DNA from: Streptomyces bathyalis
Lineage (GTDB): Bacteria; Actinomycetota; Actinomycetes; Streptomycetales; Streptomycetaceae
NCBI RefSeq assembly: GCF_015910445.1
Contig: NZ_CP048882.1
Coordinates: forward strand, 496,001 to 560,000
Reading direction: 5' to 3'
Length of the DNA: 64,000 nucleotides
The notes under the pieces were generated by a model that saw only the letters and a program-made list of their open reading frames with translations, was not told the DNA's origin and ran no database searches. The position numbers and the translations under genes were made by a program. Positions within the stretch are counted from its first letter, which is position 1; each line of letters begins with the position of its first letter. Of this stretch, positions 8,165-37,178 are shown in pieces.

Positions 8165-11781
<3,617 letters not shown>

Positions 11782-12970: not shown

Positions 12971-13849
12971 ATGGCGACGACCGTCAAGCCGGTGAAGCTG
13001 GATCTGCACCGGCTCGAAGTGATGGCGGAGTCCGACTACTACAACCCGTACACGGTCTTCGACTGGCCGGACACCCTGGAGGAGGACCGGCCGTGGATGA
13101 GCGAGGACCTGGTGACCCTCGCCGGGACGGAGAAGTGGGACGAGCTGACACGTGAGCAGCAACTCGCCCTGACCCGCCATGAGGCCGTGAACTTCTTCAG
13201 CCTCAACGTGCACGGCATCCGGGAACTGCTCAGCGAAGTCGTGCTCCGCATCCACACCAGGACTTATGCCGAAGCCTCGGAGTTCCTCCACCACTTCATC
13301 GGCGAGGAGAACGAGCACATGTGGTTCTTCGGGACCTTCTGCCGCCGCTATCTGGGCAAGGTGTATCCGGCGGTCCCGCAGGTGGGCGTGAGCCGGCTGG
13401 AGGGCGTGAGCGAGGCCGCACACGAGTTGCTGGTCTTCGCGCGCATTCTGATCTTCGAGGAGATCGTCGACTACTTCAACGCCCGCATGGCCACGGACCA
13501 GGCGCTCCCGCACATCGCACGGGAGATCAACCGCGTGCACCACCAGGACGAGAGCCGCCATGTCGCGTTCGGCAGGCGCCTGTTCACGCAGCTCCTGACC
13601 CAGGTTCAGGAGAACAGTCCGCAGGACGTCCCGGTTCTGGCGGAGTACCTGGAGAAGTACCTGCAGTACAGCGTCCAGAGTCTCTACAACCCGGCCGTCT
13701 ACCGCGACGCCGGGCTGGCCGAGCCCCTGGAGCTGAGGCGTCACCTTCTGGCGCACCCCGCCCGCCACGCCGCGCACGACCGCATCCTGCAGCGCACGCG
13801 GAGATTCCTCGCACGCAGCGGCCTCGACACGCAGGGAGCCACGGCATGA
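12971..13849 (+). CDS. AurF-like diiron oxygenase
   Basis: ATG 12971 with an upstream GGAAAGAGG gives 292 aa. All seven metal ligands of AurF-type N-oxygenases can be placed: Glu85, Glu113 and His116 (from EENEH), Glu163 or Glu164 (from IFEEIVD), His190, Glu194 and His197 (from HHQDESRH). The i/i+4/i+7 spacing of the last three matches the family. AurF oxidises an arylamine to a nitro group and relatives oxidise amines on carrier-protein-bound substrates. The next gene, a carrier protein, overlaps by four bases (ATGA), so the substrate may be an aminoacyl thioester (inference). Hydroxylation at carbon is an alternative outcome. It is the first gene of a six-gene operon. Confidence 0.82.
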   Translation: MATTVKPVKLDLHRLEVMAESDYYNPYTVFDWPDTLEEDRPWMSEDLVTLAGTEKWDELTREQQLALTRHEAVNFFSLNVHGIRELLSEVVLRIHTRTYAEASEFLHHFIGEENEHMWFFGTFCRRYLGKVYPAVPQVGVSRLEGVSEAAHELLVFARILIFEEIVDYFNARMATDQALPHIAREINRVHHQDESRHVAFGRRLFTQLLTQVQENSPQDVPVLAEYLEKYLQYSVQSLYNPAVYRDAGLAEPLELRRHLLAHPARHAAHDRILQRTRRFLARSGLDTQGATA

Positions 13850-14091
13850 GCGACGACAAGATCGCCAAGATCCTCGCCTTCATCCACGAGCGCAACCCGG
13901 AAGCGGGTGAACTGGGCCTGGACGACGACCTGATCGACCGACGGGCGGTCGACTCGCTTGCCTTCGTCGAGTTCCTCTACCTGCTGGAGGAGCTGAGCGG
14001 CGAGACCATCGATCCGGAGGAGCTCGACCTCGAGGACTTCCGCACGCTCCGGGCCATCGACAAGCGCTTCCTCTCGGGAGCGGTGCACTGA
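13846..14091 (+). CDS. Stand-alone acyl/aminoacyl carrier protein
   Basis: An 81-residue acidic helical protein with the phosphopantetheine site VDSLAF (Ser37) after a hydrophilic loop and followed by a long amphipathic helix. The size is that of a free carrier protein. It overlaps the oxygenase stop by ATGA and its own TGA overlaps the next ATG by one base, so the three genes are tightly coupled. The following gene encodes an amino acid:carrier-protein ligase, which loads an amino acid onto the arm, and a PPTase two genes further on can install the arm. There is no adjacent NRPS or PKS module, so it likely acts as a discrete shuttle. Confidence 0.88.
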   Translation: MSDDKIAKILAFIHERNPEAGELGLDDDLIDRRAVDSLAFVEFLYLLEELSGETIDPEELDLEDFRTLRAIDKRFLSGAVH

Positions 14092-14942
14092 TGGACACCG
14101 GCACCGGGACGACGGTGAACGACGGGCTGGACGTGCTCGGCGCGGACGAACTGCGCCTGCTGCGCGTCCTCGATGACCTGTTCACGGAATGGGGGGTGCG
14201 ACTCGGCGCCGAGGAGCGCCGCTACCCGTTCCTGCTGAAGCCGCGTGAACTCGAAGACGTCGACTACTACGAGAACTTCCCGCACCTGGGGCTGGCCGCG
14301 GCGACGGCCGATCCCAAGCTGCTCGGCGAACTGCGGGCCGTCCGCGAGGCCCCGCTCGCCGAACTGCCAACGGAGGTCCTCCACGACGCCGCTCTGGCGC
14401 TGCCTTCGGCCGCCTGCTACTCGGTCTACTTCCATCTGCGCGGGCAGACGCTGCCGTCGGAGGAGAACCGGGTCACCACCCGCGCGACCTGCTTCCGCAA
14501 TGAGACGCAGTACGAGGGCCTGCGGCGGCTGCTCGGCTTCTCCATGCGCGAGATCGTCTTCGTCGGCCACGCCGCCGGCGCCACGGAGCACCTGGAGCGG
14601 ACCAAGGAGCTGGTGCTGGGTTTCGCGGACGCACTCGGCCTCGCGATGGACACCCGCACGGCAACTGACCCGTTCTTCGACAGCCGCAGTTCGCGCGCCA
14701 CCATGCAGCGGCTGTTCCCGGTGAAGGAGGAATTCGTCGTCGACGGTCTGGCCGTCGGCTCGGTGAACTACCACCGCAACTTCTTCGGGGAGCGCTGCGC
14801 CATCGCCCTCCCGGACGGCACGCCCGCGTCCACCAGTTGCTGCGCCTTCGGTCTGGAGCGATGGGTGCACATCCTCAGCACCCGCTTCAGCGGCGCCCGT
14901 GACGCCGCCGAGGCAGTAGCTCGCAGCAGCGTGAACGCGTGA
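14091..14942 (+). CDS. Amino acid:[carrier protein] ligase (class II aaRS-like)
   Basis: A 283-residue protein resembling the catalytic core of atypical seryl-tRNA synthetases without a tRNA-binding arm. Motif 2 appears as TRATCFRNETQYEG (residues 130-143) and motif 3 as CCAFGLERW (250-258). Cys109, Glu154 and Cys250/251 are spaced like the zinc ligands Cys-Glu-Cys of the aa:CP ligases first described in Bradyrhizobium. Such enzymes activate glycine, alanine or a related small amino acid with ATP and pass it to the phosphopantetheine of a small carrier protein. The preceding gene is precisely such a carrier. Amino acid choice cannot be read from the sequence. Confidence 0.87.
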   Translation: MDTGTGTTVNDGLDVLGADELRLLRVLDDLFTEWGVRLGAEERRYPFLLKPRELEDVDYYENFPHLGLAAATADPKLLGELRAVREAPLAELPTEVLHDAALALPSAACYSVYFHLRGQTLPSEENRVTTRATCFRNETQYEGLRRLLGFSMREIVFVGHAAGATEHLERTKELVLGFADALGLAMDTRTATDPFFDSRSSRATMQRLFPVKEEFVVDGLAVGSVNYHRNFFGERCAIALPDGTPASTSCCAFGLERWVHILSTRFSGARDAAEAVARSSVNA

Positions 14943-14984
14943 ACTCTCCCTTCCGCCCTCCGACTTCCCACCGAAGGTGAACCG

Positions 14985-15836
14985 ATGACCGACATGACCG
15001 TCGACGACGTGCTCGAGACCGGCACCGTCCAGGTGTCCGACGACATCCGGCTCAGCTACGAGAGACGCGGATCCGGCACGGACATCGTGCTGCTCAACAA
15101 CTTCTTCGTGGACCGCAAGTCCTGGCGGGCCTACACGGGGGACCTCGCCGCTGCGGCACGCCTCACCGCCTACGACCTGAGAGGTCAGGGCGAATCGACC
15201 CCGCTGGCCGACGAACCGGTGTGGGAGGAGCACATCAGCGACCTCAAGGCGCTCTTCGACGGTCTGGGTATCGAGAAGGCGTTCCTGGTGGGCACGTCCT
15301 TCTCGACGCTGCTCTGCCGGGACTTCGCGATCGCCCACCCGGACCGGGTGCACGGGCTGGTGCTCGCCAGTCCCGCGCTGAGCCCGTACGGGCCACAGCG
15401 GCTGCGCCGGCTCACCAAGTCCTGGCTGCACACGCTCGACACCTCGGGCCTGGCCGTCCTGCACGACCAGGTCTATCCGCTGGTGTGCAGCGACCGTGCC
15501 GTGGAGGAGGTGGGCACCGCCGGATTCCTGGGTTACAAGCAGAACTTCCTCGGCATCCACACCGTCGAGTCGCTGCGGGCCGGCCTGCTGGCCTCGACGA
15601 AGGCGCCCCTCGACCCGCAGACCCTCACCCAAGTGCGGCAGCCGACACTGCTGTTCGTCGGCGGCGACGACTTCTCGCTGAGCCTCGACGCAACGGAACG
15701 GCTGACCAAGCTCCTGCCGGACGCCACCGCGGTCATCGTGCCGCACGGCGGGCACGCGGCCTTCGTCGAGGAGTCCGAGTGGTTCAACCGGGAAGTGCTG
15801 GCCTTCGTCCGGCGAGTGACCGGAACGGATGAGTGA
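14985..15836 (+). CDS. Alpha/beta hydrolase, possible carrier-protein release enzyme
   Basis: A 283-residue alpha/beta hydrolase with nucleophile elbow GTSFS (Ser105), Asp227/228 in VGGDDFS and His256 in PHGGHAAF. The usual HG oxyanion motif is replaced by LLNNFFVD (residues 36-43), so substrate recognition is unusual. It follows the ligase by 42 bp and its stop overlaps the PPTase start. In this operon a hydrolase would be needed to free a product from the carrier protein, so a type II thioesterase or condensing/hydrolytic role is plausible (inference). Lactonase or haloperoxidase-like roles remain possible. Confidence 0.72.
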   Translation: MTDMTVDDVLETGTVQVSDDIRLSYERRGSGTDIVLLNNFFVDRKSWRAYTGDLAAAARLTAYDLRGQGESTPLADEPVWEEHISDLKALFDGLGIEKAFLVGTSFSTLLCRDFAIAHPDRVHGLVLASPALSPYGPQRLRRLTKSWLHTLDTSGLAVLHDQVYPLVCSDRAVEEVGTAGFLGYKQNFLGIHTVESLRAGLLASTKAPLDPQTLTQVRQPTLLFVGGDDFSLSLDATERLTKLLPDATAVIVPHGGHAAFVEESEWFNREVLAFVRRVTGTDE

Positions 15837-16564
15837 GCCCGCTCCTTCCCGGAACGTCTCCACCTGGACGGGCAGCGGTGAACGCCGGTCCTGCCGGTCC
15901 GCAGTTCTGCGATGAGCTGCTGCTGCACGGCCCCGGCGGCAGTGTGCGCGTCGTGGTGGAGACCGCTCCGGTGCGTCCGCCCCGCACCGTCGCCGAGCAG
16001 CACCGCGCCGGTCGCCTGGCAACCGCCGCGGCGCTGCGGCGGGCCGGAAGCAGGGTGAGAACCGTGGGCCGGCGGCGCGATGGTGCACCGAAGTTCCCGC
16101 CGGGCATCGCCGGCTCCCTCACGCACACCGAGGACCTGGCCGTGGCGGCGGTGGCACCAGGCGCCCGCGGAGTCGGCGTCGACCTCGAACCGCGCCTCCC
16201 GGAGCGGCGGTTGCACCGGTTCCTGCTGAACGAGGAGGAGCGTGCCCTGCTGTGGCGGGACGGTGACCGGGCGGGGCTGCGGAGGCTGTTCGCCGCGAAG
16301 GAGGCCGCTTTCAAGGCGCTGTCCGGCTACCGCGGCGCGCACGGCGGTCTCTTCTGGCGGGTCCGGCTCGTCCTGTTCGGGGATCAGCTGTGGGCGCGTG
16401 CGGGTGACCAGTACGCGCTGGTCCGGGCAGCCGCCGCGCCGGACTTCGCGTTCGCCGTGGCAGTCCGCCTCGATGAGCCTCCCCCATTTGCCAACTCGCC
16501 CCGCACGCAACGGGCTTGGCGTCCGGCAACGGAGAGAGGACCACAGCCGCCGCATCGCCTGTGA
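15833..16564 (+). CDS. 4'-phosphopantetheinyl transferase (Sfp type)
   Basis: Start GTG 15833 overlaps the hydrolase stop by four bases (243 aa). Sfp-type landmarks are present: GSLTHT (94-99), VGVDLE with Mg-binding Asp117 and Glu119, and FAAKEAAFKA (153-162) with Lys156, Glu157 and Lys161. These enzymes move the phosphopantetheine arm from CoA to the serine of a carrier protein. Having a dedicated copy in the operon strongly suggests Ser37 of the stand-alone carrier protein is its target. The C-terminal 30 residues are Pro/Arg-rich and probably disordered. Confidence 0.92.
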   Translation: MSPLLPGTSPPGRAAVNAGPAGPQFCDELLLHGPGGSVRVVVETAPVRPPRTVAEQHRAGRLATAAALRRAGSRVRTVGRRRDGAPKFPPGIAGSLTHTEDLAVAAVAPGARGVGVDLEPRLPERRLHRFLLNEEERALLWRDGDRAGLRRLFAAKEAAFKALSGYRGAHGGLFWRVRLVLFGDQLWARAGDQYALVRAAAAPDFAFAVAVRLDEPPPFANSPRTQRAWRPATERGPQPPHRL

Positions 16565-16614
16565 GTGGGAGCTCCGCGAGTCATCCGAGTCACCCGAGAA
16601 GGGACCACGGACCC

Positions 16615-17439
16615 ATGCAAGCCGTTTCCTACACCGCCCAGTGGATGGCCGCCGCCCGCGCGCTGGAATCCGAGCGCGACGACGCGCTGTTCACCGACCC
16701 GCTGGCCGAAGCGCTCGCCGAGCCCAGGGGCTCCGAGATGATCGAACGCTATGCGGGCGGCGGGCTGCTGCCGTTCATCTCCATCCGCACCCGCTTCCTG
16801 GACGACGCGATCGGCGACCTGCTGGCGGACGGCTCCATACGGCAGGTGGTGCTGATCGCCGCCGGGATGGACACCCGGGCGTTCCGGCTGCGGTGGCCCG
16901 ACGGCACCGATCTGTACGAGGTCGACCACGGCCCGCTCATCGAGGAGAAGCGGCGCCGCCTGGAGGCCCTCGGCGCGACGCCGGCGGTGCGGCGCCACGA
17001 GCTGTCCGCCGATCTCACCCAGGAGTGGCTTCCCGAGTTGGAGATGGCCGGGTTCGATCCGTCGCGCCCCACGCTCTGGATCGCCGAGGCGCTGACGTTC
17101 TTCCTCACCGAGGCTCAGGCGGCAGGGCTGCTCCGGCTGCTGGCCTCCCACTCGGCTCCCGGCAGCCACATCGCTCTCGACATCCTCGGCAGAGGACTGC
17201 TGCGCAACCCCTTCTCCAGGACCTTTCTGGACCGCCTGGCCGCCGACGGCACTCCGTGGGTCTTCGGCACGGACGAGCCCGAGGAGTTCCTCGCGGCCAA
17301 CGGCTGGGACGTCGTATGCCTCAGGGAGCCGGGGCAGCCGGGCGCCGGTGAGGGCCGCTGGCCCTACCAGGTCCAGCCCCGCGACCGCCGCCACGCCAAC
17401 CGCCTGTGGCTCATCCGCGCACGCCTGGCGGCGGGGTGA
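16615..17439 (+). CDS. SAM-dependent methyltransferase, LCMT/TIGR00027 family
   Basis: ATG 16615 gives 274 aa beginning MQAVSYTAQWMAAARALES. The SAM-binding motif AAGMDTRAFR is at 82-91 and YEVDHGP at 101-107; together these identify the leucine carboxyl methyltransferase-like family common in actinomycetes. Members are thought to O-methylate carboxylates or hydroxyls of small molecules. It is the last gene of the carrier-protein operon, 50 bp after the PPTase, and may methylate the released product (inference). It runs into the convergent LuxR-type gene with only 19 bp between stops and no clear terminator. Confidence 0.82.
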   Translation: MQAVSYTAQWMAAARALESERDDALFTDPLAEALAEPRGSEMIERYAGGGLLPFISIRTRFLDDAIGDLLADGSIRQVVLIAAGMDTRAFRLRWPDGTDLYEVDHGPLIEEKRRRLEALGATPAVRRHELSADLTQEWLPELEMAGFDPSRPTLWIAEALTFFLTEAQAAGLLRLLASHSAPGSHIALDILGRGLLRNPFSRTFLDRLAADGTPWVFGTDEPEEFLAANGWDVVCLREPGQPGAGEGRWPYQVQPRDRRHANRLWLIRARLAAG

Positions 17440-17458: not shown

Positions 17459-18451
17459 TCAGATCCACCGCCGGCGAGTGGCTTGCACTCCGGCCTCGAA
17501 CCGGCTGGAGGCTCCGAGCCGCTTCATCAGCTCGCTCACCATCCGCCGCTCCGTGCGGACCCCGATACCCAGGGCGCGCGCCGCGGCTTCGTCCGTGAGG
17601 CCGGTGCCGAGGAGCTGGAGCAATTTCCGCTCCTGCGGGGTGAGTTCGCAGGACGGAGCGTCACTCACGTCGACGAGCTGGTTGGCGGACGAGGCGTGTT
17701 CCCAGTACGCCTCGAAGAGCGCGCGCATCGCGAGCACCACGGGCTGCCCGGTGAAGAGCAACGCCGACGTCCCGCTCTGCCCGGGCAGGCCGGCGACCAT
17801 CGCCGCGCTCGTGTCGATGACGAGCAGCTGCAGCGGCAGGGTCGGGGAGGTCCGGACGTCGCCGTTGTTCTCCATCATCCACTGGGCGTGCGTCCGGCCC
17901 ACACGGTCGTTGGCGATGCTGTCGAGATAGATCGAGCGGAACTTCACGCCCCGCGCCAGCGCCTGCTCGATCAGGGACCGTCCCGTCTGGATCGCCCCCA
18001 CCCCCGGTCCGCTCCCGGGGTGGAAGGCGAGGAACTCGGTCGTGCAGGACTCGGCGAGGGCCTCCAGCCGGATCCGTATCTCGTCGAGGTGGTGCAACTC
18101 CTCGACGCGGTCGCCGGCTTCGGACTGGCGGGAAGCGGTGTATTCGGCGTCCAGTGACGCGAGTGCTGCCCGCTCCTGCTCGATGCGCTGCTGACGCCAG
18201 GTCAACTCGTCCTGCTCACGCCGCAGAAGCATCTTCAGGCCGATCCGGGGGTTCACCGCGCGCAGTGTGCCGGGCGCGTCCCGGGAAGGAGCCAGGAGGG
18301 AGAGGTCGGCCAAGCGCTGAAGTACGGCCTCCACCTCGTCGGTCTCCAACTCCAGCAGCTCGCTGAGCGTCACCGAGTCCTGCTCCTTGTGGAAGAGGAT
18401 CGCCCGGTACACCTCGAGGGCCTGCTGGTCGAGCAACGCGCCCCTGTCCAA
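17459..18451 (-). CDS. TrmB-like/LuxR-type transcriptional regulator
   Basis: A 330-residue protein. Residues 1-60 form a winged-helix-like TrmB segment (VTLSELLELETDEVEAVLQR). A central region (70-250) resembles a phospholipase D-like effector domain. The C-terminal 65 residues are a LuxR helix-turn-helix: LTPQERKLLQLLGTGLTDEA followed by AARALGIGVRTERRMVSELM. Such regulators are frequent inside Streptomyces biosynthetic loci and typically activate them. It sits between the carrier-protein operon (convergent) and the diterpene cluster, so either could be its target. No phosphorylation site is apparent. Confidence 0.85.
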   Translation of the reverse strand: MDRGALLDQQALEVYRAILFHKEQDSVTLSELLELETDEVEAVLQRLADLSLLAPSRDAPGTLRAVNPRIGLKMLLRREQDELTWRQQRIEQERAALASLDAEYTASRQSEAGDRVEELHHLDEIRIRLEALAESCTTEFLAFHPGSGPGVGAIQTGRSLIEQALARGVKFRSIYLDSIANDRVGRTHAQWMMENNGDVRTSPTLPLQLLVIDTSAAMVAGLPGQSGTSALLFTGQPVVLAMRALFEAYWEHASSANQLVDVSDAPSCELTPQERKLLQLLGTGLTDEAAARALGIGVRTERRMVSELMKRLGASSRFEAGVQATRRRWI

Positions 18452-19994: not shown

Positions 19995-21062
19995 ATGAGC
20001 ACGCAGACGTTGGATCTCGGCAGAACCAGCGCGGCGGAGACGAGAGAGTCCGTCGCGAATTTCCTTGAGAAGTTCCTCACCGAGAAGAAGGAGAAGGCCG
20101 TACTCCCGCAGGCGGAGCGACTGCCTCAGATCCTGGCGGAGTTCCTCACGGGAGGAAAGCTCATCCGCCCCCTGCTCACGGTGACCGGATGGGTGGCGGC
20201 GGGCGGGGCGAGGGACAGTGAACAGGTCGTACAGGTCGCCGCTTCACTGGAGATGTTCCACGCGTTCGCCCTGATCCATGACGACATCATGGATCACAGT
20301 GAACTCCGCAGAGGCCGCCCCACCGCTCACCGCCAGCTCTCCGCGGATCAACAGGGCTCCGGTGCCAGGCACTTCGGTGTCGGCGCGGCAATACTGCTGG
20401 GCGATCTCGCTTTCACGTGGTCCGACGAGATACTGCACCGGGCAGACCTCACTCCCGTTCAGTTCGCATCGGTTTTCCCGGTCATCAGCGAGATGCGCAG
20501 CGAGGTGATGCTGGGGCAGTATCTCGATCTGCGGGGCACGGGAAACCCGACGGACGACGTGGAGTCGACGCTGACGGTCAGCCGCTACAAGACCGCCAAA
20601 TACACGGTCGAGCGGCCCCTGCACATAGGAGCGGCCCTTGCGGGCGCCGGCCTCGGGACCATGGACGTCTTCACCGCGTATGCCATTCCGCTGGGCGAGG
20701 CCTTCCAGCTCCGCGACGATCTGCTCGGCGTCTACGGCGACGCCCGGACAACCGGGAAGTCCCATCTCGACGACCTTCGCGTCGGCAAGAACACCACGCT
20801 TGTCGCGCTCGCCCTGCGTGCCGCCGACCCCGGACAGGCCGCCCTGCTGCACGAGTTGATCGGAAATCCCTCCCTGGACGAAGCGGGTGCCGAACAGGTG
20901 CGGAAGATCTTCGCCGAAACAGGCGCCAAAGACACCGTCGAAGAAATGATCGAGAACCGCTACCGGGAGTCCGTCGAAGCGCTGGATGGTGCGCCGTTCG
21001 CCGCTGAGGCGATTCACGCCCTCCAGGATCTCGCCCGCAATGCCACTAGGAGGACGTCATGA
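19995..21062 (+). CDS. cotB1: Geranylgeranyl diphosphate synthase, CotB1-like
   Basis: A 355-residue trans-prenyltransferase with ATG 19995 after GAGGGAG. The first Asp-rich motif is DDIMD (96-100) within ALIHDDIMDHSELRRGRP. The second is RDDLLGVYGD from about residue 240. GGKLIRP (53-59) binds isopentenyl diphosphate. The enzyme condenses IPP with allylic diphosphates to give GGPP. Its stop overlaps the cotB2 ATG (ATGA), and the downstream gene is a CotB2-type cyclase, so GGPP is the expected product. It is first in a four-gene operon with the same order as the cyclooctatin cluster. Confidence 0.88.
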   Translation: MSTQTLDLGRTSAAETRESVANFLEKFLTEKKEKAVLPQAERLPQILAEFLTGGKLIRPLLTVTGWVAAGGARDSEQVVQVAASLEMFHAFALIHDDIMDHSELRRGRPTAHRQLSADQQGSGARHFGVGAAILLGDLAFTWSDEILHRADLTPVQFASVFPVISEMRSEVMLGQYLDLRGTGNPTDDVESTLTVSRYKTAKYTVERPLHIGAALAGAGLGTMDVFTAYAIPLGEAFQLRDDLLGVYGDARTTGKSHLDDLRVGKNTTLVALALRAADPGQAALLHELIGNPSLDEAGAEQVRKIFAETGAKDTVEEMIENRYRESVEALDGAPFAAEAIHALQDLARNATRRTS

Positions 21063-21997
21063 CCCCTGACACCGTCACCCGGCACCCCGCGCCGCTCGCG
21101 GACGGCGTTTCCCAAGGCACCGGAATGGCGCGTCGCCTGCCGGGATGTACGGACAGATTCGCCTCGCTGTTCTCTCAGCATGTTGCGCACGAGGCGGAAA
21201 AGGTGCCGATGTCGGACGCAGAACTGCGCGAGGTCATGGACACCTGCAACCGTGCGGTGGCGCCGCTGGGGAAGGACGTCTCCGACAAGCGCTGGATCTC
21301 GTACATGGACGTGGTCCGGTGGTCCCAATCCGCCCGCCACATCAAGGACATGGAAGCGTTCAAGGCTGTCTGCGTGCTGAACTGCGTCACCTTCGTGTGG
21401 GACGACATGGATCCCGCGCTGCACCGGTTCGATCTCTTTCTGCCCCAGGTGAGCGCGGTGTGCGAACGCTACTACGCACCACAGGACGCGGCATTCGCCT
21501 ATGAGGGAGCCCGCGCGTTCATCACCAGCGACCACATGTTCCGCGATTCGCCGATCAAGAAGACGCTCTGCAGCACCTCTCCCGAGCAGTACTTCCGGTT
21601 CCGGGTCACCGACGTCGGCGTGGACTTCTGGATGAAGATGTCCTACCCGATCTACCGGCACGCGGAGTTCACCGAGCACGCCAAGACGGGGCTCGCCGCA
21701 CGCATGACCACGCGCGGACTGGCGATCGTCAACGACTTCTACTCCTACGAACGCGAGAACGCGCTCGGCCAGATCACCAACTGCTTCGAACTGTGCGACG
21801 TGGACGACGACAAGGACTTCGAGCGCTTCTTCGAGGAGCGGCTGAAGGACATGACGGAGGACATCGAATGCGTCAAAGCCTTCGACGAGACCACCGCGGA
21901 CATCCTCCTGGACCTTCTCCGCGGCAACTTCGTGTGGACGACACGTGACCGGCGCTACAAGGCGGCCGTGAACGACGTCAACTCGTTCATCCGATAG
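21059..21997 (+). CDS. cotB2: Cyclooctat-9-en-7-ol synthase (class I diterpene cyclase)
   Basis: A 312-residue cyclase with start ATG 21059 and a perfect AGGAGG. Long stretches match CotB2 of Streptomyces melanosporofaciens as I remember it, with a constant offset of five residues: DDMD at 115-118, NDFYSYERE at 225-233, Phe112 (F107), Phe154 (F149), Trp191 (W186) and Trp293 (W288). The Asp-rich motif binds Mg-diphosphate; the aromatic residues steer the cation cascade to the fused 5-8-5 ring. One change in the NSE triad region is YER in place of YDR. Product cyclooctat-9-en-7-ol is predicted, unless unseen pocket changes redirect the cascade. Confidence 0.92.
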   Translation: MTPDTVTRHPAPLADGVSQGTGMARRLPGCTDRFASLFSQHVAHEAEKVPMSDAELREVMDTCNRAVAPLGKDVSDKRWISYMDVVRWSQSARHIKDMEAFKAVCVLNCVTFVWDDMDPALHRFDLFLPQVSAVCERYYAPQDAAFAYEGARAFITSDHMFRDSPIKKTLCSTSPEQYFRFRVTDVGVDFWMKMSYPIYRHAEFTEHAKTGLAARMTTRGLAIVNDFYSYERENALGQITNCFELCDVDDDKDFERFFEERLKDMTEDIECVKAFDETTADILLDLLRGNFVWTTRDRRYKAAVNDVNSFIR

Positions 21998-22007
21998 GAG
22001 CCGCCCG

Positions 22008-23366
22008 GTGCCGAACACGATCTCTCCCCCGGCGGACCGCACTTGGCGGACCGGCAAGGCCCCCGGCGCCCTCCCGCTGCTGGGGCACGTCCTTCCGCTC
22101 TGGCGCGACCCGCTGGGCTTCCTGGCCTCACTGCCCTCCCACGGCGACGTGGTCGAGGTCCGCATCGGCCCCGGCCGCGCCTACCTCGTCAACCATCCCG
22201 AGCTGGTCAGACACGTACTGCTCCACCCGCGGGTCTTCGACAAGGGCGGGATCTTCGACAAGGCGCGGCAACTGCTCGGCAACAGCCTGTCCGTGTCCCG
22301 CGGTGAGGAGCACCGGTACCAGCGCCGGCTCGTCCAGCCCGCCTTCCGCCCGGGGAAGATCGCCGAGTACACGCGCGCCGTCGCCGACGACACGAACTCG
22401 GCGATCGCCGCATGGAGTTCGGGCGACGTACGGAACATCAGCGACGAGATGCACGCACTGCTGATGCGCGTGGCCGCGCGGACCCTCTTCTCCACGGGTC
22501 TTGACGACGCCACGATCGAAGAGGCCCGGCACTGCCTGCGAACCGTTTCCCTGGGGATCTACAAACGGGCCATGGCACCGCTGGGAGTCATGGAGAAGCT
22601 GCCCACTCCGGCGAAGCGCGCCTACGACCACGCCAACACCAGGCTGCGGGAAATCGTGGCGACGATGATCGACACCCAGCGGCGGTCCCCCTCCGACCGG
22701 CAGGATCTGGTGTCGACGCTGCTGCGTGCCGAGCATCCGGTGACCGGGGAGAAGCTCACGGACCGCGAACTGCTGGACCAGGTCGTCACGTTCCTGATCG
22801 CCGGCAGTGAGACCACGGCCTCGACGCTCGCCTTCGTATTCCACCTGATGGGGGCCTTCCCCGAGGTCGAGAAGCGGGTCCACACGGAGATCGACGAGGC
22901 CGTCGGGGACCGGGCTCCGGCCTACGAGGACCTGCCGTCACTCCCCTACACGCGCAACGTCATCACCGAGGCGCTGCGCCTCTACCCGCCGTCCTGGATG
23001 GCGATGAGGGTGGCGGTCGAGGACGTCGAACTCGGCGGCCTGCCGGTCCGGTCGGGCGCCATGGTCCTCTACAGCGCCTACGCCATGCACCGCAATCCGG
23101 AGCTGTTCCCCTCCCCGGAGACGTTCGACCCCGGGCGCTGGGAAGCGGACCGGGCCGCGCGGGTGCCCCGCGGCGCGCTGCTGCCGTTCGGCGCCGGCAG
23201 CCACAAGTGCATCGGCGACGTGCTGGCGCTCACCGAGACGACGCTCATCGTCGCGGCCATCGCGGCGGGTTGGCGGCTGCGCCCGGTGCCCGGAACCCGG
23301 CTGCGCCCGGAACCGAGGGCGACGCTCGAGGCCGGACCGCTGCCCATGATCTGCGAACGGCGTTGA
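22008..23366 (+). CDS. cotB3: Cytochrome P450, CotB3-like (C-5 hydroxylase candidate)
   Basis: GTG 22008 with AGGAG at 21996-22000 gives a 452-residue P450. The I-helix motif is AGSETT (265-270), ExxR is EALR (321-324) and the heme-binding loop is FGAGSHKCIGD with Cys401. It is of the longer, CYP170-like bacterial type. In the described cyclooctatin pathway CotB3 hydroxylates cyclooctat-9-en-7-ol at C-5. The assignment rests on gene order (third gene after the cyclase, 10-bp gap) as well as family. No ferredoxin or reductase gene is included, so electrons must come from elsewhere. Confidence 0.82.
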   Translation: MPNTISPPADRTWRTGKAPGALPLLGHVLPLWRDPLGFLASLPSHGDVVEVRIGPGRAYLVNHPELVRHVLLHPRVFDKGGIFDKARQLLGNSLSVSRGEEHRYQRRLVQPAFRPGKIAEYTRAVADDTNSAIAAWSSGDVRNISDEMHALLMRVAARTLFSTGLDDATIEEARHCLRTVSLGIYKRAMAPLGVMEKLPTPAKRAYDHANTRLREIVATMIDTQRRSPSDRQDLVSTLLRAEHPVTGEKLTDRELLDQVVTFLIAGSETTASTLAFVFHLMGAFPEVEKRVHTEIDEAVGDRAPAYEDLPSLPYTRNVITEALRLYPPSWMAMRVAVEDVELGGLPVRSGAMVLYSAYAMHRNPELFPSPETFDPGRWEADRAARVPRGALLPFGAGSHKCIGDVLALTETTLIVAAIAAGWRLRPVPGTRLRPEPRATLEAGPLPMICERR

Positions 23367-23454
23367 CCCCCGCGTGCACCCGCCCGCTTCGTGCGCCGCA
23401 CCTCATGTCCCACCGGCTTTATCCCCGTCACCGCCGCAACCGAGGAGAGCTCCC

Positions 23455-24690
<1,236 letters not shown>

Positions 24691-31300: not shown

Positions 31301-32167
31301 TCACTCCCTTTCGGGGTCGAGGCCGTGGTAGACGCGCATGGCGTTCTCCCCCAGCACAAGCGGCACCGTCTCGTCGGAGAACCCCAGCCCGGCAGCAGCC
31401 CGAGCGTTCACGGCGGTTCCGGGGACACCGGGCCAGTCGGTGCCGAAGATCCACTTGCGCGCGAGCCTGTTCAGATCATGGCGTGCGTAATACGTCGTCA
31501 GGCGCTTGGGGGGCAGTCCGGACAGTTCGATCCAGACGTTCTCGTTCGAGAGCGCGAGGAACGCCGCGGCGTCGTACCACCAGCCCCGGCCCCCGTGTGC
31601 GAGGACGACCTTGAGATCGGGGAACATCCTGAGCACCGGGTAGAGCTGCGTCGGGTCCGCGTTCTCGTTCATCGACCCCGGGAAGGACGACGTCCCGCAG
31701 TGCATCACGAGCGGGACGTTCCGCTCGACGAGCACCGAGTACGCCGGAAACAGCGCGGGATCGTCCAGGCGGAACCCACCGTGCACGGGGTGCAGTTTGA
31801 GCGCGGCCGCACCCAGGTCGAGCTGCCGCCGCAGCTCCCGGTCGACCGGGAAGTGCAGATGCGGGTTGACGTTCGCGACGGGACGGAAGCGCCGCGGGTT
31901 CTGCTCGATGAGCGGCAGCAGGTCGTCGAAGTGCTGGTAGCCCGTGGCCTTCGGGCTGTACTCGCAGAACAGCAGCGCCACATCGACGCCTTCGGCGGCG
32001 AACAGGCTGTCCAGCTTCGCCGGGTCCGGGTTGCCGTCCGCGTCCCAGACGAGTCCCAGCACGCCCTCGGGCCCGAAGTCACGTGCCCACTGCGACCATG
32101 CGGGGGCGATCGAGGACAGCAGGGGCACGTGCACATGGGCGTCGACCAGGAGATGACCGTCCAACAT
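31301..32167 (-). CDS. Amidohydrolase-2 family (ACMSD-like) TIM-barrel enzyme
   Basis: A 288-residue TIM-barrel metallo-enzyme with VDAHVHVP near residue 8 (HxH), LKLHPVHG near 126, MHCGTSS near 155 and FGTDWPG near 243 carrying the conserved Asp. This is the amidohydrolase-2 group that includes decarboxylases such as ACMSD and gamma-resorcylate decarboxylase. Its position inside the box operon (15 bp after fdxA, 3 bp before paaY) shows it works on a benzoate-related compound or side product. It is not part of the standard box pathway, so its reaction is unknown. Confidence 0.8.
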   Translation of the reverse strand: MLDGHLLVDAHVHVPLLSSIAPAWSQWARDFGPEGVLGLVWDADGNPDPAKLDSLFAAEGVDVALLFCEYSPKATGYQHFDDLLPLIEQNPRRFRPVANVNPHLHFPVDRELRRQLDLGAAALKLHPVHGGFRLDDPALFPAYSVLVERNVPLVMHCGTSSFPGSMNENADPTQLYPVLRMFPDLKVVLAHGGRGWWYDAAAFLALSNENVWIELSGLPPKRLTTYYARHDLNRLARKWIFGTDWPGVPGTAVNARAAAGLGFSDETVPLVLGENAMRVYHGLDPERE

Positions 32168-32182
32168 CCGTGGAACTCCTGC

Positions 32183-32521
32183 CTAGTTGCCGGGGTGCTT
32201 CGAGACAAGCGGAGTGTCGACGCCGATGTCGCCGGTCAGCCGCGAGCCGCCGGGTGTGCCTATCGGCTCGTCCCGGCCGGGCAGCACCTCGCTGAAAAAG
32301 GTTCTGTTGTCCTCGATGAACTCCTGCTGCTCCTCCGGTACCCGGCGGTCCTGGGAGATCGCTTCCACGGGGCACACGGGTTCGCAGGCGCCGCAGTCTA
32401 TGCACTCCTTGCCGTTGATGTAGAGCTTGCGCTCGCCGACGTAGATGCAGTCGACCGGGCACTCCTCGACGCAGGACTGGTCGGTGATGTCGATGCAGTC
32501 CGACATGATCACGTAGGGCAT
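32183..32521 (-). CDS. fdxA: Seven-iron ferredoxin
   Basis: A 112-residue FdxA-type ferredoxin. Cys9, Cys17, Cys21 and Cys25 in SDCIDITDQSCVEECPVDC, and Cys40, Cys43, Cys46 and Cys50 in CIDCGACEPVCP, give one [3Fe-4S] and one [4Fe-4S] site in the usual arrangement. It lies 13 bp after the ferredoxin-NADP reductase gene and inside the box operon. Together the two probably supply electrons to BoxB, replacing the BoxA fusion protein of proteobacteria (inference). Confidence 0.92.
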   Translation of the reverse strand: MPYVIMSDCIDITDQSCVEECPVDCIYVGERKLYINGKECIDCGACEPVCPVEAISQDRRVPEEQQEFIEDNRTFFSEVLPGRDEPIGTPGGSRLTGDIGVDTPLVSKHPGN

Positions 32522-32534
32522 CGTGGTGTCCTCC

Positions 32535-33575
32535 TCAGGCCGCCGCCGCGGCGACGGGTGCCTCGTCGGTGCTGTGTCCGGGGAACAACGAGGCCTCGGG
32601 GTCGAGATGCACCGCGGCGTTGTTGACCGCGGTGGCCACCTCGCCGAAGCCGACCGAGATCAGACGCACCTTGCCCGGGTACTCGGAGATGTCCCCTGCC
32701 GCATAGACGCCGGGCAGGTCGGTCGCCATTCTCGAATCGACCATGAGGTGGCGGTTGTCGTGCAGGTCGAAGCCCCACTCGCGCATCGGCCCGAGGTCGG
32801 CCAGGAAGCCGAGCGCGGCCACGACCCGCTGTGCGGGCAGCACGAAGGGGTCCTGGTTCTTCGGGGTCACTTCGACCTTCTCTATCGTTCCGTTGCCCTC
32901 GATGCGGGTCACCTGTGCGTCGGTCATCACCGTGGCGCCGCAGGAGCGCACCGCGTCGACGGTGGCGGCGTGCGCGCGGAAGGCGGTCCGCCGGTGCACG
33001 AGCGTCACCGACCTGGCGATCGGCTTCAGCGCGAGCACCCAGTCGCAGGCGCTGTCGCCACCGCCGACCACGACGACGTCGGTGCCGGTGAAGTCGCCGA
33101 GCGACGGCACGAAGTACGACAGCCCGCGGCCGAGGAAGTCCTCCCCGGCCGGCAGCGGCCGGGGAGTGAAGGTGCCGATGCCGCCGGTCACCACGACCGC
33201 GCCGCAGTCGATCACCGTCCCGTCGGACGCCGTCAGCCGGAACCGGTCCGGGCCGTCGCCGGACGGGACGGACTCCAGCGACCGGGCCTGCCTGCCGAGG
33301 AGGTACAACGGGCTGTACCGGTCGGCCTGTTCGACGAGGTTGTCGACGAGCTCCCGCCCCCGCACGCTGGGAAAGCCCGCGATGTCGAAGATGGGCTTCT
33401 CCGGGTACATCGCCGTGACCTGGCCCCCCGGTTCGGGCAGTGAGTCCACCAACGCGACGCGCAGCCCGCGGACGCCGGCGTAGTAGGCGCCGTACAGCCC
33501 GACGGGTCCCGCTCCGACGAGCACGAGGTCCACCTCGTGGCGGTCGCCGGAGGGAGTCTGCTCCCCACTGGTCAT
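32535..33575 (-). CDS. Ferredoxin-NADP+ reductase, thioredoxin-reductase-like type
   Basis: Start ATG 33575 follows AGGAGCAG and yields 346 aa; an in-frame ATG 15 bp upstream lacks its own ribosome site. The FAD site is VGAGPVGLYGAYYAG near residue 18, the NADPH site VVVGGGDSACDW near 170 and the C-terminal flavin motif VYAAGDISEYPGKVRL. There is no CxxC redox pair, so it is the ferredoxin-NADP reductase branch and not thioredoxin reductase. It is encoded between benzoate-CoA ligase and the ferredoxin and likely reduces that ferredoxin for benzoyl-CoA epoxidation. Confidence 0.88.
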   Translation of the reverse strand: MTSGEQTPSGDRHEVDLVLVGAGPVGLYGAYYAGVRGLRVALVDSLPEPGGQVTAMYPEKPIFDIAGFPSVRGRELVDNLVEQADRYSPLYLLGRQARSLESVPSGDGPDRFRLTASDGTVIDCGAVVVTGGIGTFTPRPLPAGEDFLGRGLSYFVPSLGDFTGTDVVVVGGGDSACDWVLALKPIARSVTLVHRRTAFRAHAATVDAVRSCGATVMTDAQVTRIEGNGTIEKVEVTPKNQDPFVLPAQRVVAALGFLADLGPMREWGFDLHDNRHLMVDSRMATDLPGVYAAGDISEYPGKVRLISVGFGEVATAVNNAAVHLDPEASLFPGHSTDEAPVAAAAA

Positions 33576-33601
33576 CTGCTCCTCCTGCATGGTGCTCGCG
33601 C

Positions 33602-35227
33602 TCAGCTGACGGCTTCGGGCTCGGCGGACGTCCGGGCGGCGCTTTCCGCCGGGGGGCCCGCGGCGCCGGCTTCGGCGGCCATCTGACGGATCTTGAAGCG
33701 CTGCAATTTGCCGCTCGCGGTGCGCGGCAGCGTCTCCACGCACACCACGCGGCGGGGCGCCTTGAAGTGGGCGAGGCCGTCCCGGCAGAAGCCGATCAGG
33801 TCCTCGGGTGTCGCGGTGGCACCCTTCGCGAGCACCACGTAGCCCACCGGCTTGTCCAGGCCCTCGCCGTCCGGTACGCCGACCACGGCGGCCTCGATCA
33901 CATCCTCGTGCTCGATCAGGCGGCTCTCGACCTCGCCCGGCGACACCCAGATGCCGCCGGCCTTCAGCATGTCGTTGGAGCGGCCGAGGCAGGTGTAGCG
34001 GCCCTCGTCGTCGCGCACGTAGGTGTCTCCGGTGGCCAGCCAGTCGCCCTGGAAGACATGGCGGCTGGTCTCGGTACGGCACCAGTAACCCGTCGCGATC
34101 GACTGGCCCTTGACGTACAGCGAACCCGGCTCGCCGGGGGGACGCACGGTGCCGCGCTCGTCCCGTATCTGCAACTCGTAGCCGGGCACCGGGAATCCGC
34201 TCGTGCCGGGACCGATGTCGTCGGGCCGGTTCGACAGGAAGATGTGCAGGGCCTCGGTGGAGCCCAGGCCATCGATGATCTTCACGCCGAAGTGCTCCTG
34301 CCAGCGGTGCAGCAGCGGCGCCGGCAGGGCCTCACCGGCCGAGACGGCAAGACGAACCGACGACATCAGGTCCGCTGGCAGATCGGCGGCCAGCATCCCC
34401 GCGTAGAAGGTGGGGACGCCGAAGAAGAGGGTCGGCCGGTCGGCGCTCACCCGCTCCGCGATCACCTCCGGGGTGGGGCGCCGCGGTTCCAGCACGGTCG
34501 TCGCACCGGCCGAGAGGGGGAAGAACGCCGAGTTGCCGATCCCGTAGGCGAAGAAGAGCTTCGCGACGGACAGGCACCGGTCGTCGGGATGTATCCCCAG
34601 TACCTGCTGCCCGTACGTCTCGCACACGTGCCGGATGTTGACGTGCCGGTGCATCGCGGCCTTCGGCATGCCGGTCGTTCCGGAGGTGTAGAGCCACAGC
34701 GCCGGTGTGTCCTCGACGGTGCCGGCGAGCGGGCCGTCCGGCGGTGCGAGCCCGCCGGTGAACTCCGCCCACGGCAGCCGCACCACCCGCTGAGGCACCT
34801 CCGGTTCGGCCTCCCCCACCACGACGAGGTGGCTCACGTCGGGTGACGCCAGCACCGCCTCGCCGCATGCCTCGGCGAACTCCGAGGTGCACACGAGCAC
34901 ACGGGCTCCGCAGTCGGCGAGGATGGCGCCGAGCTCCTTGCCGGTCAGCATCGTGCTCACCGGTACGGCGACCAGCCCGGCGCGGAAGGCGCCCAGGATG
35001 GTCGTCAGCAGTTCCGGGGTGTCGGACATGCAGCACATCACGCGCTCGTCGCGGTGCATGCCGATGCGCAGCAGCGCACCGGCCACGCGGGCGGTCTCCG
35101 CGGACAGCTGCGCGTAGGTGATGTCCCCTTCCGCGTGGCGGACGGCGGTGTGGTGGCCGCGCCCGCCGTCGAGGTGCCGGTCGACAAGGTAGCTGGCGGC
35201 GTTGAAGGACCGTGAGGGCATGGACAT
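33602..35227 (-). CDS. bclA: Benzoate-CoA ligase
   Basis: A 541-residue adenylate-forming enzyme of the benzoate-CoA ligase branch. The AMP-binding P-loop is LYTSGTTGMPKAAMHRH, followed by FFAYGIGNSAFFPLSAG and GSTEALHIF, both typical of benzoate/2-aminobenzoate ligases; the hinge is LATGDTY and the catalytic lysine lies in PRTASGKLQRF. It converts benzoate, ATP and CoA to benzoyl-CoA, the entry step of the box pathway. It is 38 bp after boxC on the same strand. Start ATG 35227 was chosen over MPS four residues in; the difference is small. Confidence 0.92.
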   Translation of the reverse strand: MSMPSRSFNAASYLVDRHLDGGRGHHTAVRHAEGDITYAQLSAETARVAGALLRIGMHRDERVMCCMSDTPELLTTILGAFRAGLVAVPVSTMLTGKELGAILADCGARVLVCTSEFAEACGEAVLASPDVSHLVVVGEAEPEVPQRVVRLPWAEFTGGLAPPDGPLAGTVEDTPALWLYTSGTTGMPKAAMHRHVNIRHVCETYGQQVLGIHPDDRCLSVAKLFFAYGIGNSAFFPLSAGATTVLEPRRPTPEVIAERVSADRPTLFFGVPTFYAGMLAADLPADLMSSVRLAVSAGEALPAPLLHRWQEHFGVKIIDGLGSTEALHIFLSNRPDDIGPGTSGFPVPGYELQIRDERGTVRPPGEPGSLYVKGQSIATGYWCRTETSRHVFQGDWLATGDTYVRDDEGRYTCLGRSNDMLKAGGIWVSPGEVESRLIEHEDVIEAAVVGVPDGEGLDKPVGYVVLAKGATATPEDLIGFCRDGLAHFKAPRRVVCVETLPRTASGKLQRFKIRQMAAEAGAAGPPAESAARTSAEPEAVS

Positions 35228-35265
35228 GGGCTCTGCGCCTCCTTCTTCCTCGGCTCGGCGGTCCG

Positions 35266-37014
35266 TCAGACCCGCTTGACGTCGAAGTCGGCGCGCTTCC
35301 CGGTACCGAAGCGGCGCAACGCGCCCTCCGGTCCGGAGGCGTTGGGACGGTTGAAGATCCAGTTCTGCCAGGCGGTCAGCCGGCCGAAGATCTTCGTCTC
35401 CAGCGTCTCGGGCCCCACGAAGCGGTGGTTGGCCTCCATGCCGGTCAGGGCGTCCGGGGAGAGCGAGGCGCGCTCCTCGAGCACGATGCGCAGCTCGTCC
35501 TCGTAGTCGATGTCGTCGAGTGCCATGGTGACGAGGCCGAGTTCGGCCGCGTCGTCGGCGGTGAGCGGTGTCCCGGTGCGGGCGATTGCCGCCTCCAGGT
35601 CCTCGTCTGCCGCGTAGAAGCGCGACTGAAGCCGGCTCAGGCCGTTGCCCATCGGGTAGGCGCCCTGATTGGCCCGGCCGACGACGAGGGCCGCCGGCTC
35701 CGCGTCGGGGTCGACATCCTCGAAGACCCCGGCCAGCATGTACTGCCGGTCGCAGGCCAGCGCGAGCTCCAGCAGCGTCCCCGCGAAGCAGCTGCCCGGC
35801 TCGATCAGCGCGACGAGGCTGCGGCTGGTGACGTCGAGGCGCTTGAACGTGCGCTTGAGGTAGTGCCGCACCTCGTTGACGAACCAGTCGTCGGCGAGGT
35901 CGTCGAGCTGTGCGTCGTGGGCGAGCACCGTGCCGGCATCGCCCGCCGTGCGGAACACCCAGGTACCGAGCTCGAGTTCGTTGGTGCGCAGTCGCAGGAT
36001 CAGGTCGTCGAGCTCGCGGGCGAGCGCGAGCGGCCAGTAGTCCGTGCCCTGTTCACGTGCTGCTGCGGCGTCGGCCGGCGGTTCACCGGCGGGCGCCTCG
36101 ACCGTGATCTCGACTCGGCGCTGGTCGCGCAGCAGTTGCGCCTTGACGTGGGGGTAGCTGATCGAGTCGCTCGTCTCCGTGCGGTCCAGCGGCGTCAGTT
36201 GGACGCCCTGCGCGTCCGACGGGCGGTGTGAGCGCTTCGCGGCCTCCTCGGCCCGCGACTTCACCTCGGCGTCGAACCGGCCGCGGGAGACGGCGGCGTC
36301 GACCAGCTTCCACTCGACGGCGGTGTTGCCCTTGATGCCTTCGGACTTGGTGGCGAAGATGTCGGCCCGGTCCTTGCGGACGTGCCGCTTGTCGACCACG
36401 CGGGTCAGGCCGCCGGTTCCGGGCAGCACGCCCAGCAGCGGCACCTCCGGCAGCGCGACCGCGGACGAGCCGTCGTCGACGAGCACGATCTGCTCACAGG
36501 CCAGGGCGATCTCGTAACCACCGCCGGCGGAGGTGCCGTTGACGGCGGCGATGTAGGTCTGCCCGGAGTGCTCCGTGGCGTCCTCGAACCCGTTGCGGGT
36601 CTCGTTGGTGAACTTGCAGAAGTTCACCTTCCAGGCGTGCGTGGACTGGGCGAGCATCTTGATGTTCGCTCCCGCGCAGAACATCCGCTCCAGGCCTCCC
36701 GTGATCACCACGGACTTGACCCGCGGGTGCTCGAACCGCAGCCGCTGCACGGCGTCGTAGAGCTCGATGTCGACGCCCAGGTCGTAGGAGTTGCTCTTGA
36801 GCTCGTAGCCCGGGACGATCCCGCCCTCCTGGTCCACGAGCAGCGTGAGCGTCGCGATCTCGCCGTCGACGTCGAGCTTCCAGTGCCGGTACCGGCCGGG
36901 CGAGGTGTCGAACGAGACCTTGGGTGCCGCCTCGGGGGCCGGAGCCGCCTCGACGTCCGCAGCGCCCGCTTCGGTTACGGGCGGCTGGGTGCTGGGTTCG
37001 ACCGCGGCGGTCAT
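35266..37014 (-). CDS. boxC: 2,3-Epoxybenzoyl-CoA dihydrolase
   Basis: A 582-residue double-crotonase protein. After an Ala/Pro-rich leader, the first crotonase core has GLERMFCAGANIKML near 107 and NGTSAGGGYEIALACE near 159. The second half has LIEPGSCFAGTLLELALACD near 407, and the C-terminus is GKRADFDVKRV. BoxC opens the epoxide ring of 2,3-epoxybenzoyl-CoA with two waters to give 3,4-dehydroadipyl-CoA semialdehyde and formate. It is the first gene of a six-gene operon (boxC, bclA, reductase, fdxA, amidohydrolase, paaY). The promoter and operator lie at 37041-37089, shared with the divergent paaX gene. Confidence 0.94.
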   Translation of the reverse strand: MTAAVEPSTQPPVTEAGAADVEAAPAPEAAPKVSFDTSPGRYRHWKLDVDGEIATLTLLVDQEGGIVPGYELKSNSYDLGVDIELYDAVQRLRFEHPRVKSVVITGGLERMFCAGANIKMLAQSTHAWKVNFCKFTNETRNGFEDATEHSGQTYIAAVNGTSAGGGYEIALACEQIVLVDDGSSAVALPEVPLLGVLPGTGGLTRVVDKRHVRKDRADIFATKSEGIKGNTAVEWKLVDAAVSRGRFDAEVKSRAEEAAKRSHRPSDAQGVQLTPLDRTETSDSISYPHVKAQLLRDQRRVEITVEAPAGEPPADAAAAREQGTDYWPLALARELDDLILRLRTNELELGTWVFRTAGDAGTVLAHDAQLDDLADDWFVNEVRHYLKRTFKRLDVTSRSLVALIEPGSCFAGTLLELALACDRQYMLAGVFEDVDPDAEPAALVVGRANQGAYPMGNGLSRLQSRFYAADEDLEAAIARTGTPLTADDAAELGLVTMALDDIDYEDELRIVLEERASLSPDALTGMEANHRFVGPETLETKIFGRLTAWQNWIFNRPNASGPEGALRRFGTGKRADFDVKRV

Positions 37015-37040
37015 CGAACTCCTCCAAACGATCGGGTCAC

Positions 37041-37056
37041 TAGAGTTATGACTCTA
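37041..37056. promoter_or_regulatory. Operator-like inverted repeat overlapping the boxC -10 box
   Basis: TAGAGT-TATG-ACTCTA is a perfect 6-bp-arm repeat. Read on the minus strand, TAGAGT (37056-37051) is also a good -10 hexamer, 16 bp from TTGACG (37078-37073). A repressor bound here would block boxC transcription directly, and PaaX encoded divergently is the natural candidate. Confidence 0.65.
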
Positions 37057-37072
37057 CAATGACATGGCGAGT

Positions 37073-37089: not shown

Positions 37090-37132
37090 ATGTCTTTCTG
37101 ACGGGCCGGTCCGGGACAACCCCCGGCCGGAC

Positions 37133-37138: not shown

Positions 37139-37178
37139 CCGGGTGTTCCTCCCGGCCTCTTCGAAAGGACCCCACGCC

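What the first reader, a model, noticed from the sequence alone, without database searches (positions are those of the whole stretch)
12971..17439. Self-contained carrier-protein operon for amino acid N-oxidation, product unknown
Six coupled genes give a complete chemistry without an NRPS or PKS: an aaRS-like ligase loads a small amino acid onto a stand-alone carrier protein, a dedicated PPTase arms it, an AurF-like diiron oxygenase with all seven metal ligands can oxidise the tethered amine, an alpha/beta hydrolase with an unusual oxyanion loop may release it, and an LCMT-type methyltransferase may cap it. Sequence shows the families and the ATGA/TGATG couplings; the N-oxidation logic is inference from AurF and aa:CP ligase chemistry. 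A hydroxylamino, oxime, nitro or N-N-bonded small molecule is the predicted output.
Basis: partly seen in the sequence, partly recalled or inferred. Interest (0 to 1): 0.75.

Follow-up and report, generated by a model that had tools for sequence, protein, structure and literature searches.

The report
Stand-alone O-methyl nitronate operon
This is a six-gene Streptomyces operon predicted to load a small amino acid, likely glycine, onto a carrier protein, oxidise its nitrogen to a reactive nitronate and likely cap that with a methyl group; it looks like a variant of a published pathway, and its genes are a mosaic of two lineages, which suggests that one exchangeable gene would decide what becomes of the nitronate.

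Summary
In detail: 12971-17439 (+) encodes an AurF-type diiron oxygenase, a carrier protein, an aa:CP ligase (LIG), an alpha/beta hydrolase, a PPTase and an LCM-type methyltransferase. Three of five junctions overlap. The oxygenase-carrier-ligase triad is not new in kind: the 30 closest AurF homologs in 150 related genomes all start within 1.2 kb of a LIG, and 40 of 106 LIG loci carry a nitronate monooxygenase (NMO) family gene. This fits the published glycine-derived nitronate logic (He & Ryan 2021, seen only as citations): a carrier-bound nitronate is O-methylated or denitrified. New here: (1) NMO (40) and LCM/F65 methyltransferases (27) co-occur in none of 106 loci; (2) 52 of 54 LCM homologs at >=48% identity lie within 13.5 kb of a LIG, 0 of 22 at 39-44%; (3) the window is a mosaic: its AurF groups with NMO-type cassettes, its LCM with the O-methylation lineage (AU test p 5e-5 against one clade of LCM-bearing AurFs). 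Best reading: a small stand-alone O-methyl nitronate cassette whose product the hydrolase releases or transfers. Glycine, nitronate formation and O-methylation are inferred; the product is unknown.

The parts
12971..13849 (+). AurF-type ferritin-like diiron oxygenase (292 aa); predicted to oxidise the amine of the carrier-bound amino acid to a nitro/nitronate
13846..14091 (+). stand-alone carrier protein (81 aa), predicted phosphopantetheine site Ser37
   Evidence: PF00550 21.0 bits; DSL motif; ATGA overlap with the oxygenase
14091..14942 (+). class II aaRS-like amino acid:carrier-protein ligase (283 aa); substrate predicted glycine
   Evidence: NF005479 1.3e-31, below its cut-off; profile hit to Bll0957 4.3e-42; C109/E154/C250 align with the zinc ligands of Bll0957 (which residues these are is recalled) and are invariant in 19 sequences
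14985..15836 (+). alpha/beta hydrolase (283 aa), predicted to release or transfer the acyl group from the carrier
   Evidence: PF00561 1.9e-19; model pLDDT 90.1; S105, D228, D229, H257 in 32 of 32 sequences; Asn in the oxyanion loop
15833..16564 (+). 4'-phosphopantetheinyl transferase (243 aa from the GTG at 15833), predicted to arm the carrier protein
   Evidence: PF17837 6e-11, PF01648 5e-8; GTGA overlap with the hydrolase
16615..17439 (+). LCM/TIGR00027-type SAM methyltransferase (274 aa), predicted nitronate O-methyltransferase
   Evidence: PF04072 1.2e-46, TIGR00027 4e-63; 52 of 54 homologs at >=48% identity lie within 13.5 kb of a LIG; in none of 106 loci together with NMO
17459..18451 (-). 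convergent LuxR-type regulator (330 aa), possible pathway regulator
   Evidence: GerE 3.5e-5; homologs over 50 bits in six other LIG loci (L097, L144, L145, L147, L148, L150); such regulators are common, so this is weak

Best explanation
The operon is a self-contained cassette predicted to make a small O-methyl nitronate: the ligase would load glycine onto the carrier protein, the diiron oxygenase would oxidise its amine to a carrier-bound nitronate, the LCM-type methyltransferase would likely O-methylate it, and the alpha/beta hydrolase would release or transfer it. Shown here: the six genes, their families, the conserved catalytic residues, the conserved triad, the absence of NMO wherever LCM/F65 was found in 106 loci, and the mosaic ancestry. 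The locus has the oxygenase-carrier-ligase-hydrolase-PPTase backbone of the NMO (denitrification-type) cassettes but no NMO gene, and it carries a methyltransferase of the O-methylation lineage. Inferred: glycine as substrate, six-electron oxidation, methylation at the nitronate oxygen, the release step, and the order of steps.
For: (1) Triad: 30 of 30 AurF homologs with E<1e-50 in 150 related genomes start 0.8-1.2 kb from a LIG; the listed weaker AurF homologs (31% identity or less) that share a contig with a LIG, 24 of them, are 56 kb or more away (the list was capped). (2) Of 106 non-duplicate LIG loci 96 have this AurF; within 8 kb NMO in 40, LCM or F65 methyltransferase in 27, both in 0. 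(3) LCM: 52 of 54 homologs at >=48% identity in 392 Streptomyces genomes lie within 13.5 kb of a LIG, 0 of 22 at 39-44%. (4) Mosaic: window AurF/LIG identities are 69/57 and 68/55% to NMO-type L054 and L070 but 51/43 and 53/46% to L144 and L145, whose LCM is 76% identical to the window's. AurF tree: the window and L059-L062 (94) plus 29 NMO rows form one group (100*); LCM tree: window with L062, L144, L145 (99*); AU test against one clade of LCM-bearing AurFs p 5.0e-5. (5) Structure: the AurF model is closest to CmlI and AurF. (6) LIG matches Bll0957 with the zinc residues conserved. (7) Citing sentences on He & Ryan 2021: diiron oxygenase, nitronate, O-methylation of a glycine unit.
Against: No chemistry was tested. 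Glycine rests on distant similarity to Bll0957 and on the published system. The NMO label is itself uncertain: PF03060 matches (117 bits) and RefSeq says nitronate monooxygenase, but the best NCBIfam match of three members is the enoyl-ACP reductase FabK, far below its cut-off (88-121 vs 453 bits). The exclusion counts related loci: the tree needs only 7-9 label changes. In 30 of 96 AurF loci neither NMO nor LCM/F65 was seen, so other fates exist. Two of 54 LCM homologs at >=48% (65% and 50%) are not near a LIG. In the nearest relatives (L059-L061) the LCM is about 13.5 kb from the triad across phenazine genes, so there LCM or F65 could methylate the phenazine. The operon has no condensation enzyme of the kind that amides such as enteromycin would need. 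Foldseek alone gave AurF only E 4.6e-4 with RNR-like proteins close behind. I did not see to which family the published nitronate O-methyltransferase belongs.
Confidence: 0.6

Rival explanations
1. The oxygenase stops early: glycyl-carrier becomes a hydroxylamine or oxime, and the methyltransferase makes an O-methyl oxime or a methyl ester of the released acid (akazaoxime-like chemistry).
For: [quoted passage not shown] LCM-type enzymes are carboxyl methyltransferases by name.
Against: An NMO-family gene is a frequent extra partner of the triad (40 of 106 loci), and NMO and LCM/F65 were not found together, as if they shared one substrate.
Confidence: 0.17
2. Nitrogen is lost without NMO: the hydrolase, or an enzyme elsewhere in the genome, turns the nitronate into a C2 acid plus nitrite, and the methyltransferase acts on something else.
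For: The same hydrolase family accompanies NMO in 27 of the 39 NMO loci that have AurF; backbone ancestry is with NMO cassettes.
Against: No close NMO in the genome (one hit, 38% over about half the length, E 2.5e-11); this LCM subfamily lies near LIG in 52 of 54 cases.
Confidence: 0.13
3. The oxygenase acts on a free aromatic amine or a phenazine, and the ligase-carrier pair supplies a separate aminoacyl group that the hydrolase transfers.
For: Near relatives of the cassette lie in a phenazine cluster (L162: PhzG 319 bits over the cut-off of 270, PhzF 193 over 76) and beside p-aminophenylalanine-type genes (L062); AurF and CmlI oxidise arylamines.
Against: The AurF-LIG link (30 of 30) holds in architectures without recognised aromatic-amine genes; tblastn of eight proteins of the phenazine cluster and two L062 genes found in the window only one 90-aa match (33%, E 4.6e-4) to the PabAB-like protein, at 10535-10777.
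Confidence: 0.07

Closest known systems
Glycine-derived nitronate pathway of enteromycin carboxamide and the related denitrification cassettes (He & Ryan, Nat Chem 2021; not held, seen as citations, abstract recalled)
   Same: Carrier-bound amino acid, diiron oxygenase, then a methyltransferase or an oxidative denitrification step (recalled)
   Different: Here a six-gene stand-alone operon with its own PPTase and hydrolase, no NMO and no condensation enzyme; backbone and methyltransferase have different ancestries. Whether the published ligase is aaRS-like was not seen
Akazaoxime / A-76356 cluster of Micromonospora (PMC9967187)
   Same: Diiron oxygenase plus nitronate O-methyltransferase on a glycine unit, as proposed there
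   Different: There glycine is said to be loaded on an NRPS and joined with leucine and methylmalonyl-CoA; here an aaRS-like ligase and a free carrier protein
Amino acid:carrier protein ligases such as Bll0957
   Same: Class II aaRS core without a tRNA-binding domain, zinc residues conserved
   Different: Forms a subfamily often tied to AurF oxygenases (96 of 106 loci)
AurF and CmlI arylamine N-oxygenases; Dob3 hydrazone oxidase
   Same: Fold and diiron ligands
   Different: 13-15% identical to AurF/CmlI in the structural alignments; predicted substrate is a carrier-bound aliphatic amine

Membership tests
AurF-type ferritin-like diiron N-oxygenases | Sequence family and fold | tested here: met
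AurF-type ferritin-like diiron N-oxygenases | Seven metal ligands (4 Glu, 3 His) | tested here: met
   E71, E113, H116, E163, H190, E194, H197 invariant in 38 sequences; four of six intervals equal those of Dob3
AurF-type ferritin-like diiron N-oxygenases | N-oxygenation activity | not testable with these tools
   no assay
Amino acid:carrier protein ligase | Class II core without tRNA-binding domain | tested here: met
   283 aa; profile aligns with residues 77-322 of the Bll0957 chain, 4.3e-42; NF005479 match is below its curated cut-off
Amino acid:carrier protein ligase | Zinc-binding Cys/Glu/Cys | tested here: met
   C109, E154, C250 align with the Bll0957 residues (their role recalled) and are invariant in 19 sequences
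Amino acid:carrier protein ligase | Loads an amino acid on a carrier protein | not testable with these tools
   no assay
Glycine-derived nitronate cassette | Diiron oxygenase, carrier protein and amino-acid activating enzyme together | tested here: met
   operon; 96 of 106 LIG loci have the AurF
Glycine-derived nitronate cassette | Glycine is the substrate | not testable with these tools
   inferred from Bll0957 similarity and citations
Glycine-derived nitronate cassette, O-methylation branch | Cassette-bound methyltransferase | tested here: met
   LCM near LIG in 52 of 54 homologs at >=48% identity
Glycine-derived nitronate cassette, O-methylation branch | Methyltransferase homologous to the published nitronate O-methyltransferase | not tested
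   paper not held, sequence not available
Glycine-derived nitronate cassette, denitrification branch | Nitronate monooxygenase in the cassette | tested here: not met
   none in the operon; one genome hit, 38% over part of the length
Enteromycin-type amide pathway | Condensation enzyme for the amide | tested here: not met
   no condensation domain in the six genes; tblastn of the L091 condensation protein finds nothing in the 64-kb window

The most novel reading that the evidence does not exclude
The operon is a free-standing maker of a small O-methyl nitronate, a ready-made 1,3-dipole, built by exchanging the nitronate monooxygenase of a denitrification cassette for a nitronate O-methyltransferase from another lineage. 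The fate of a carrier-bound nitronate would then be set by one swappable gene, and the hydrolase would release or hand over the dipole without any NRPS or PKS.
Probability: 0.35. Interest if true: 0.7.

Novelty: new variant of a known kind. Interest (0 to 1): 0.52.

Why it matters
O-methyl nitronates are rare, reactive groups. If the reading holds, this is a minimal gene set for making one on a free carrier protein, handy for biocatalysis and genome mining. The 106-locus survey gives a simple rule to test: an NMO or an LCM/F65 methyltransferase next to the triad would predict denitrification or O-methylation. The mosaic points to a switch of branch within one backbone lineage, which makes branch choice directly testable by mixing purified proteins.

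Tried and rejected
Paper searches whose listings and passages did not show this triad with an aaRS-like ligase; the library lacks most subscription journals.

Dropped before counts: one search scored 121 gene-called loci less five without a called LIG (L098 and L133, where my high-GC gene caller found no genes; L157; L162 and L163 were added later) = 116, less ten duplicates = 106; L058 was left out from the start and short loci (L001-L033) were not used. Genes farther than 8 kb from LIG were not scored, so the LCM of L059-L061, 13.5 kb away, is not counted there. Near-identical loci of different species remain. All 96 AurF rows went into the large tree; the AU tree used 35 of 96 rows chosen by me to span the groups, and the tested group was named after the first tree was seen. 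One search scored at most six candidates per genome. Gene calls in unannotated loci are from my own GC-based script, so some starts are approximate.
Full report
What is there. The window lies in a 7.38-Mb single-contig genome at C1:496001-560000. The genome is taken as a Streptomyces: a genome called 'same genus' (G002) holds a 42,422-base contig that matches the S. triticagri contig of L062. Six plus-strand genes fill 12971-17439: AurF-type diiron oxygenase, carrier protein, aa:CP ligase (LIG), alpha/beta hydrolase (ABH), PPTase, LCM-type methyltransferase. Three of five junctions overlap, two have gaps of 42 and 50 nt. A convergent LuxR-type gene follows at 17459-18451.

Are the active parts intact? 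Seven predicted metal ligands of the oxygenase are invariant in 38 sequences, and four of six ligand intervals equal those of Dob3 (residues printed in PMC13061610, passages read). The AlphaFold model (pLDDT 91.4) is closest to CmlI and AurF by Z (19.9-21.5 over 263-281 residues, 13-15% identity), then R2-type proteins at 17.3 or less; Foldseek alone separates them less well. LIG matches Bll0957 (4.3e-42), and C109, E154 and C250 align with its zinc residues, whose identity I recall. ABH keeps S105, D228, D229 and H257 in 32 of 32 sequences, with Asn in the oxyanion loop in 30 of 32; its fold is a common esterase fold, which says nothing about the acyl acceptor.

How general is the triad? LIG is found in 42 of 150 related genomes. 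All 30 AurF hits with E<1e-50 lie 0.8-1.2 kb from a LIG; 30 of 56 LIG hits have such an AurF (from the tables). Of the weaker AurF hits listed, 24 share a contig with a LIG; the nearest is 56 kb away. A scan of genome contigs gave 378 relatives of LIG, of which the best 80 were kept, reaching records named Elusimicrobia, Blastocatellia, Chloroflexi, Tistrella and Burkholderiaceae.

What goes with it? In 106 non-duplicate LIG loci (8 kb around LIG): AurF 96, NMO 40, ABH 32, LCM 24, F65 methyltransferase 4; LCM or F65 in 27; NMO together with LCM or F65 in 0. Among the 96 with AurF, the chance of no overlap would be 2.6e-8 if loci were independent, which they are not: the tree needs 7-9 label changes. 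Thirty of 96 have neither. The NMO name rests on PF03060 and RefSeq; the best NCBIfam match of three members is FabK, far below its cut-off. Recurrent architectures: window type; F4-AurF-ACP-LIG-NMO-ABH-ACP2-PPTase; LCM plus a SAM-recycling set; LCM plus KAS III; condensation domain plus agmatine-deiminase family; NRPS; type II PKS.

Does the methyltransferase belong? In 392 Streptomyces genomes 76 LCM homologs at E<=1e-45 are listed. Of the 54 at >=48% identity, 52 lie within 13.5 kb of a LIG (E<=1e-40); two (65% and 50%) do not; of the 22 at 39-44%, none does. In three near relatives (L059-L061) the LCM is 81-82% identical and sits about 13.5 kb from the triad on the same contig.

Mosaic. 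To NMO-type L054 and L070 the window is 69 and 68% identical in AurF; to L144 and L145 51 and 53%. Yet the LCM is 76% identical to those of L144 and L145. AurF tree, 96 rows: the window and L059-L062 (94) form with 29 NMO rows one group (100*). LCM tree, 25 rows: the window with L062, L144 and L145 (99*). An AU test on 35 chosen rows rejects one clade of LCM-bearing AurFs (p 5.0e-5). The trees cannot tell gain from loss, so NMO loss with LCM gain is one reading, not shown.

What is known. [quoted passage not shown] PMC12154687 (passages) lists nitronate among diiron N-oxygenase products with the same citation. The paper itself is not held; I recall from its abstract that glycine on a carrier protein is oxidised to a nitronate that is O-methylated or denitrified. 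The window fits that scheme as a stand-alone O-methylation-type variant.

Verdict. Most likely function: a small O-methyl nitronate cassette (0.6). Substrate, oxidation state, methylation site and product are untested.

Noticed in passing
L162 and L163 (S. griseoluteus, Streptomyces sp. APSN-46.1): The closest relatives of the cassette lie in a phenazine cluster (L162: PhzG and PhzF over their cut-offs; DAHP synthase and TrpE/G-like proteins below theirs), with LuxC/LuxE-like genes (by resemblance) beside the LCM. A glycine-derived unit on a griseolutein-type phenazine is a possible product.
   Followed up: partly
L046, L048-L052, L153 and relatives: LCM-bearing cassettes with what read like SAM-recycling genes (MetK, adenosine kinase, MetH, MetF, AhcY; by reading translations), a Met gamma-lyase-like enzyme and a MaoC protein.
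   Followed up: no
L080:7976-8842 and 41 other loci (38 in all without duplicates): F4, a protein of about 289 aa next to AurF on its upstream side; the member scanned has no Pfam or NCBIfam match.
   Followed up: no
L054, L066, L070, L078 and relatives: NMO-type cassettes near acyl ligases, a PigE-like aminotransferase fusion (below its cut-off), or a PLP decarboxylase with an APC permease; glycine-derived nitrite for N-nitrosation is one idea.
   Followed up: no
   Followed up: no
L144, L145, L147, L148: LCM-bearing cassettes followed by a KAS III-like enzyme (Pfam scan of the L144 one; the others by resemblance), which may take the O-methyl nitronate as a starter.
   Followed up: no
window 31301-41177: Minus-strand genes that look like an aerobic benzoyl-CoA (box) pathway, by reading the translations only.
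   Followed up: no
window 19995-24690: Polyprenyl synthase, terpene synthase and two P450-like genes, a likely separate terpene cluster.
   Followed up: partly
G412:C123:32880, G304:C16:333832 and G296:C32:172134: Three LCM homologs carry one in-frame stop each; the first two are near a LIG.
   Followed up: no
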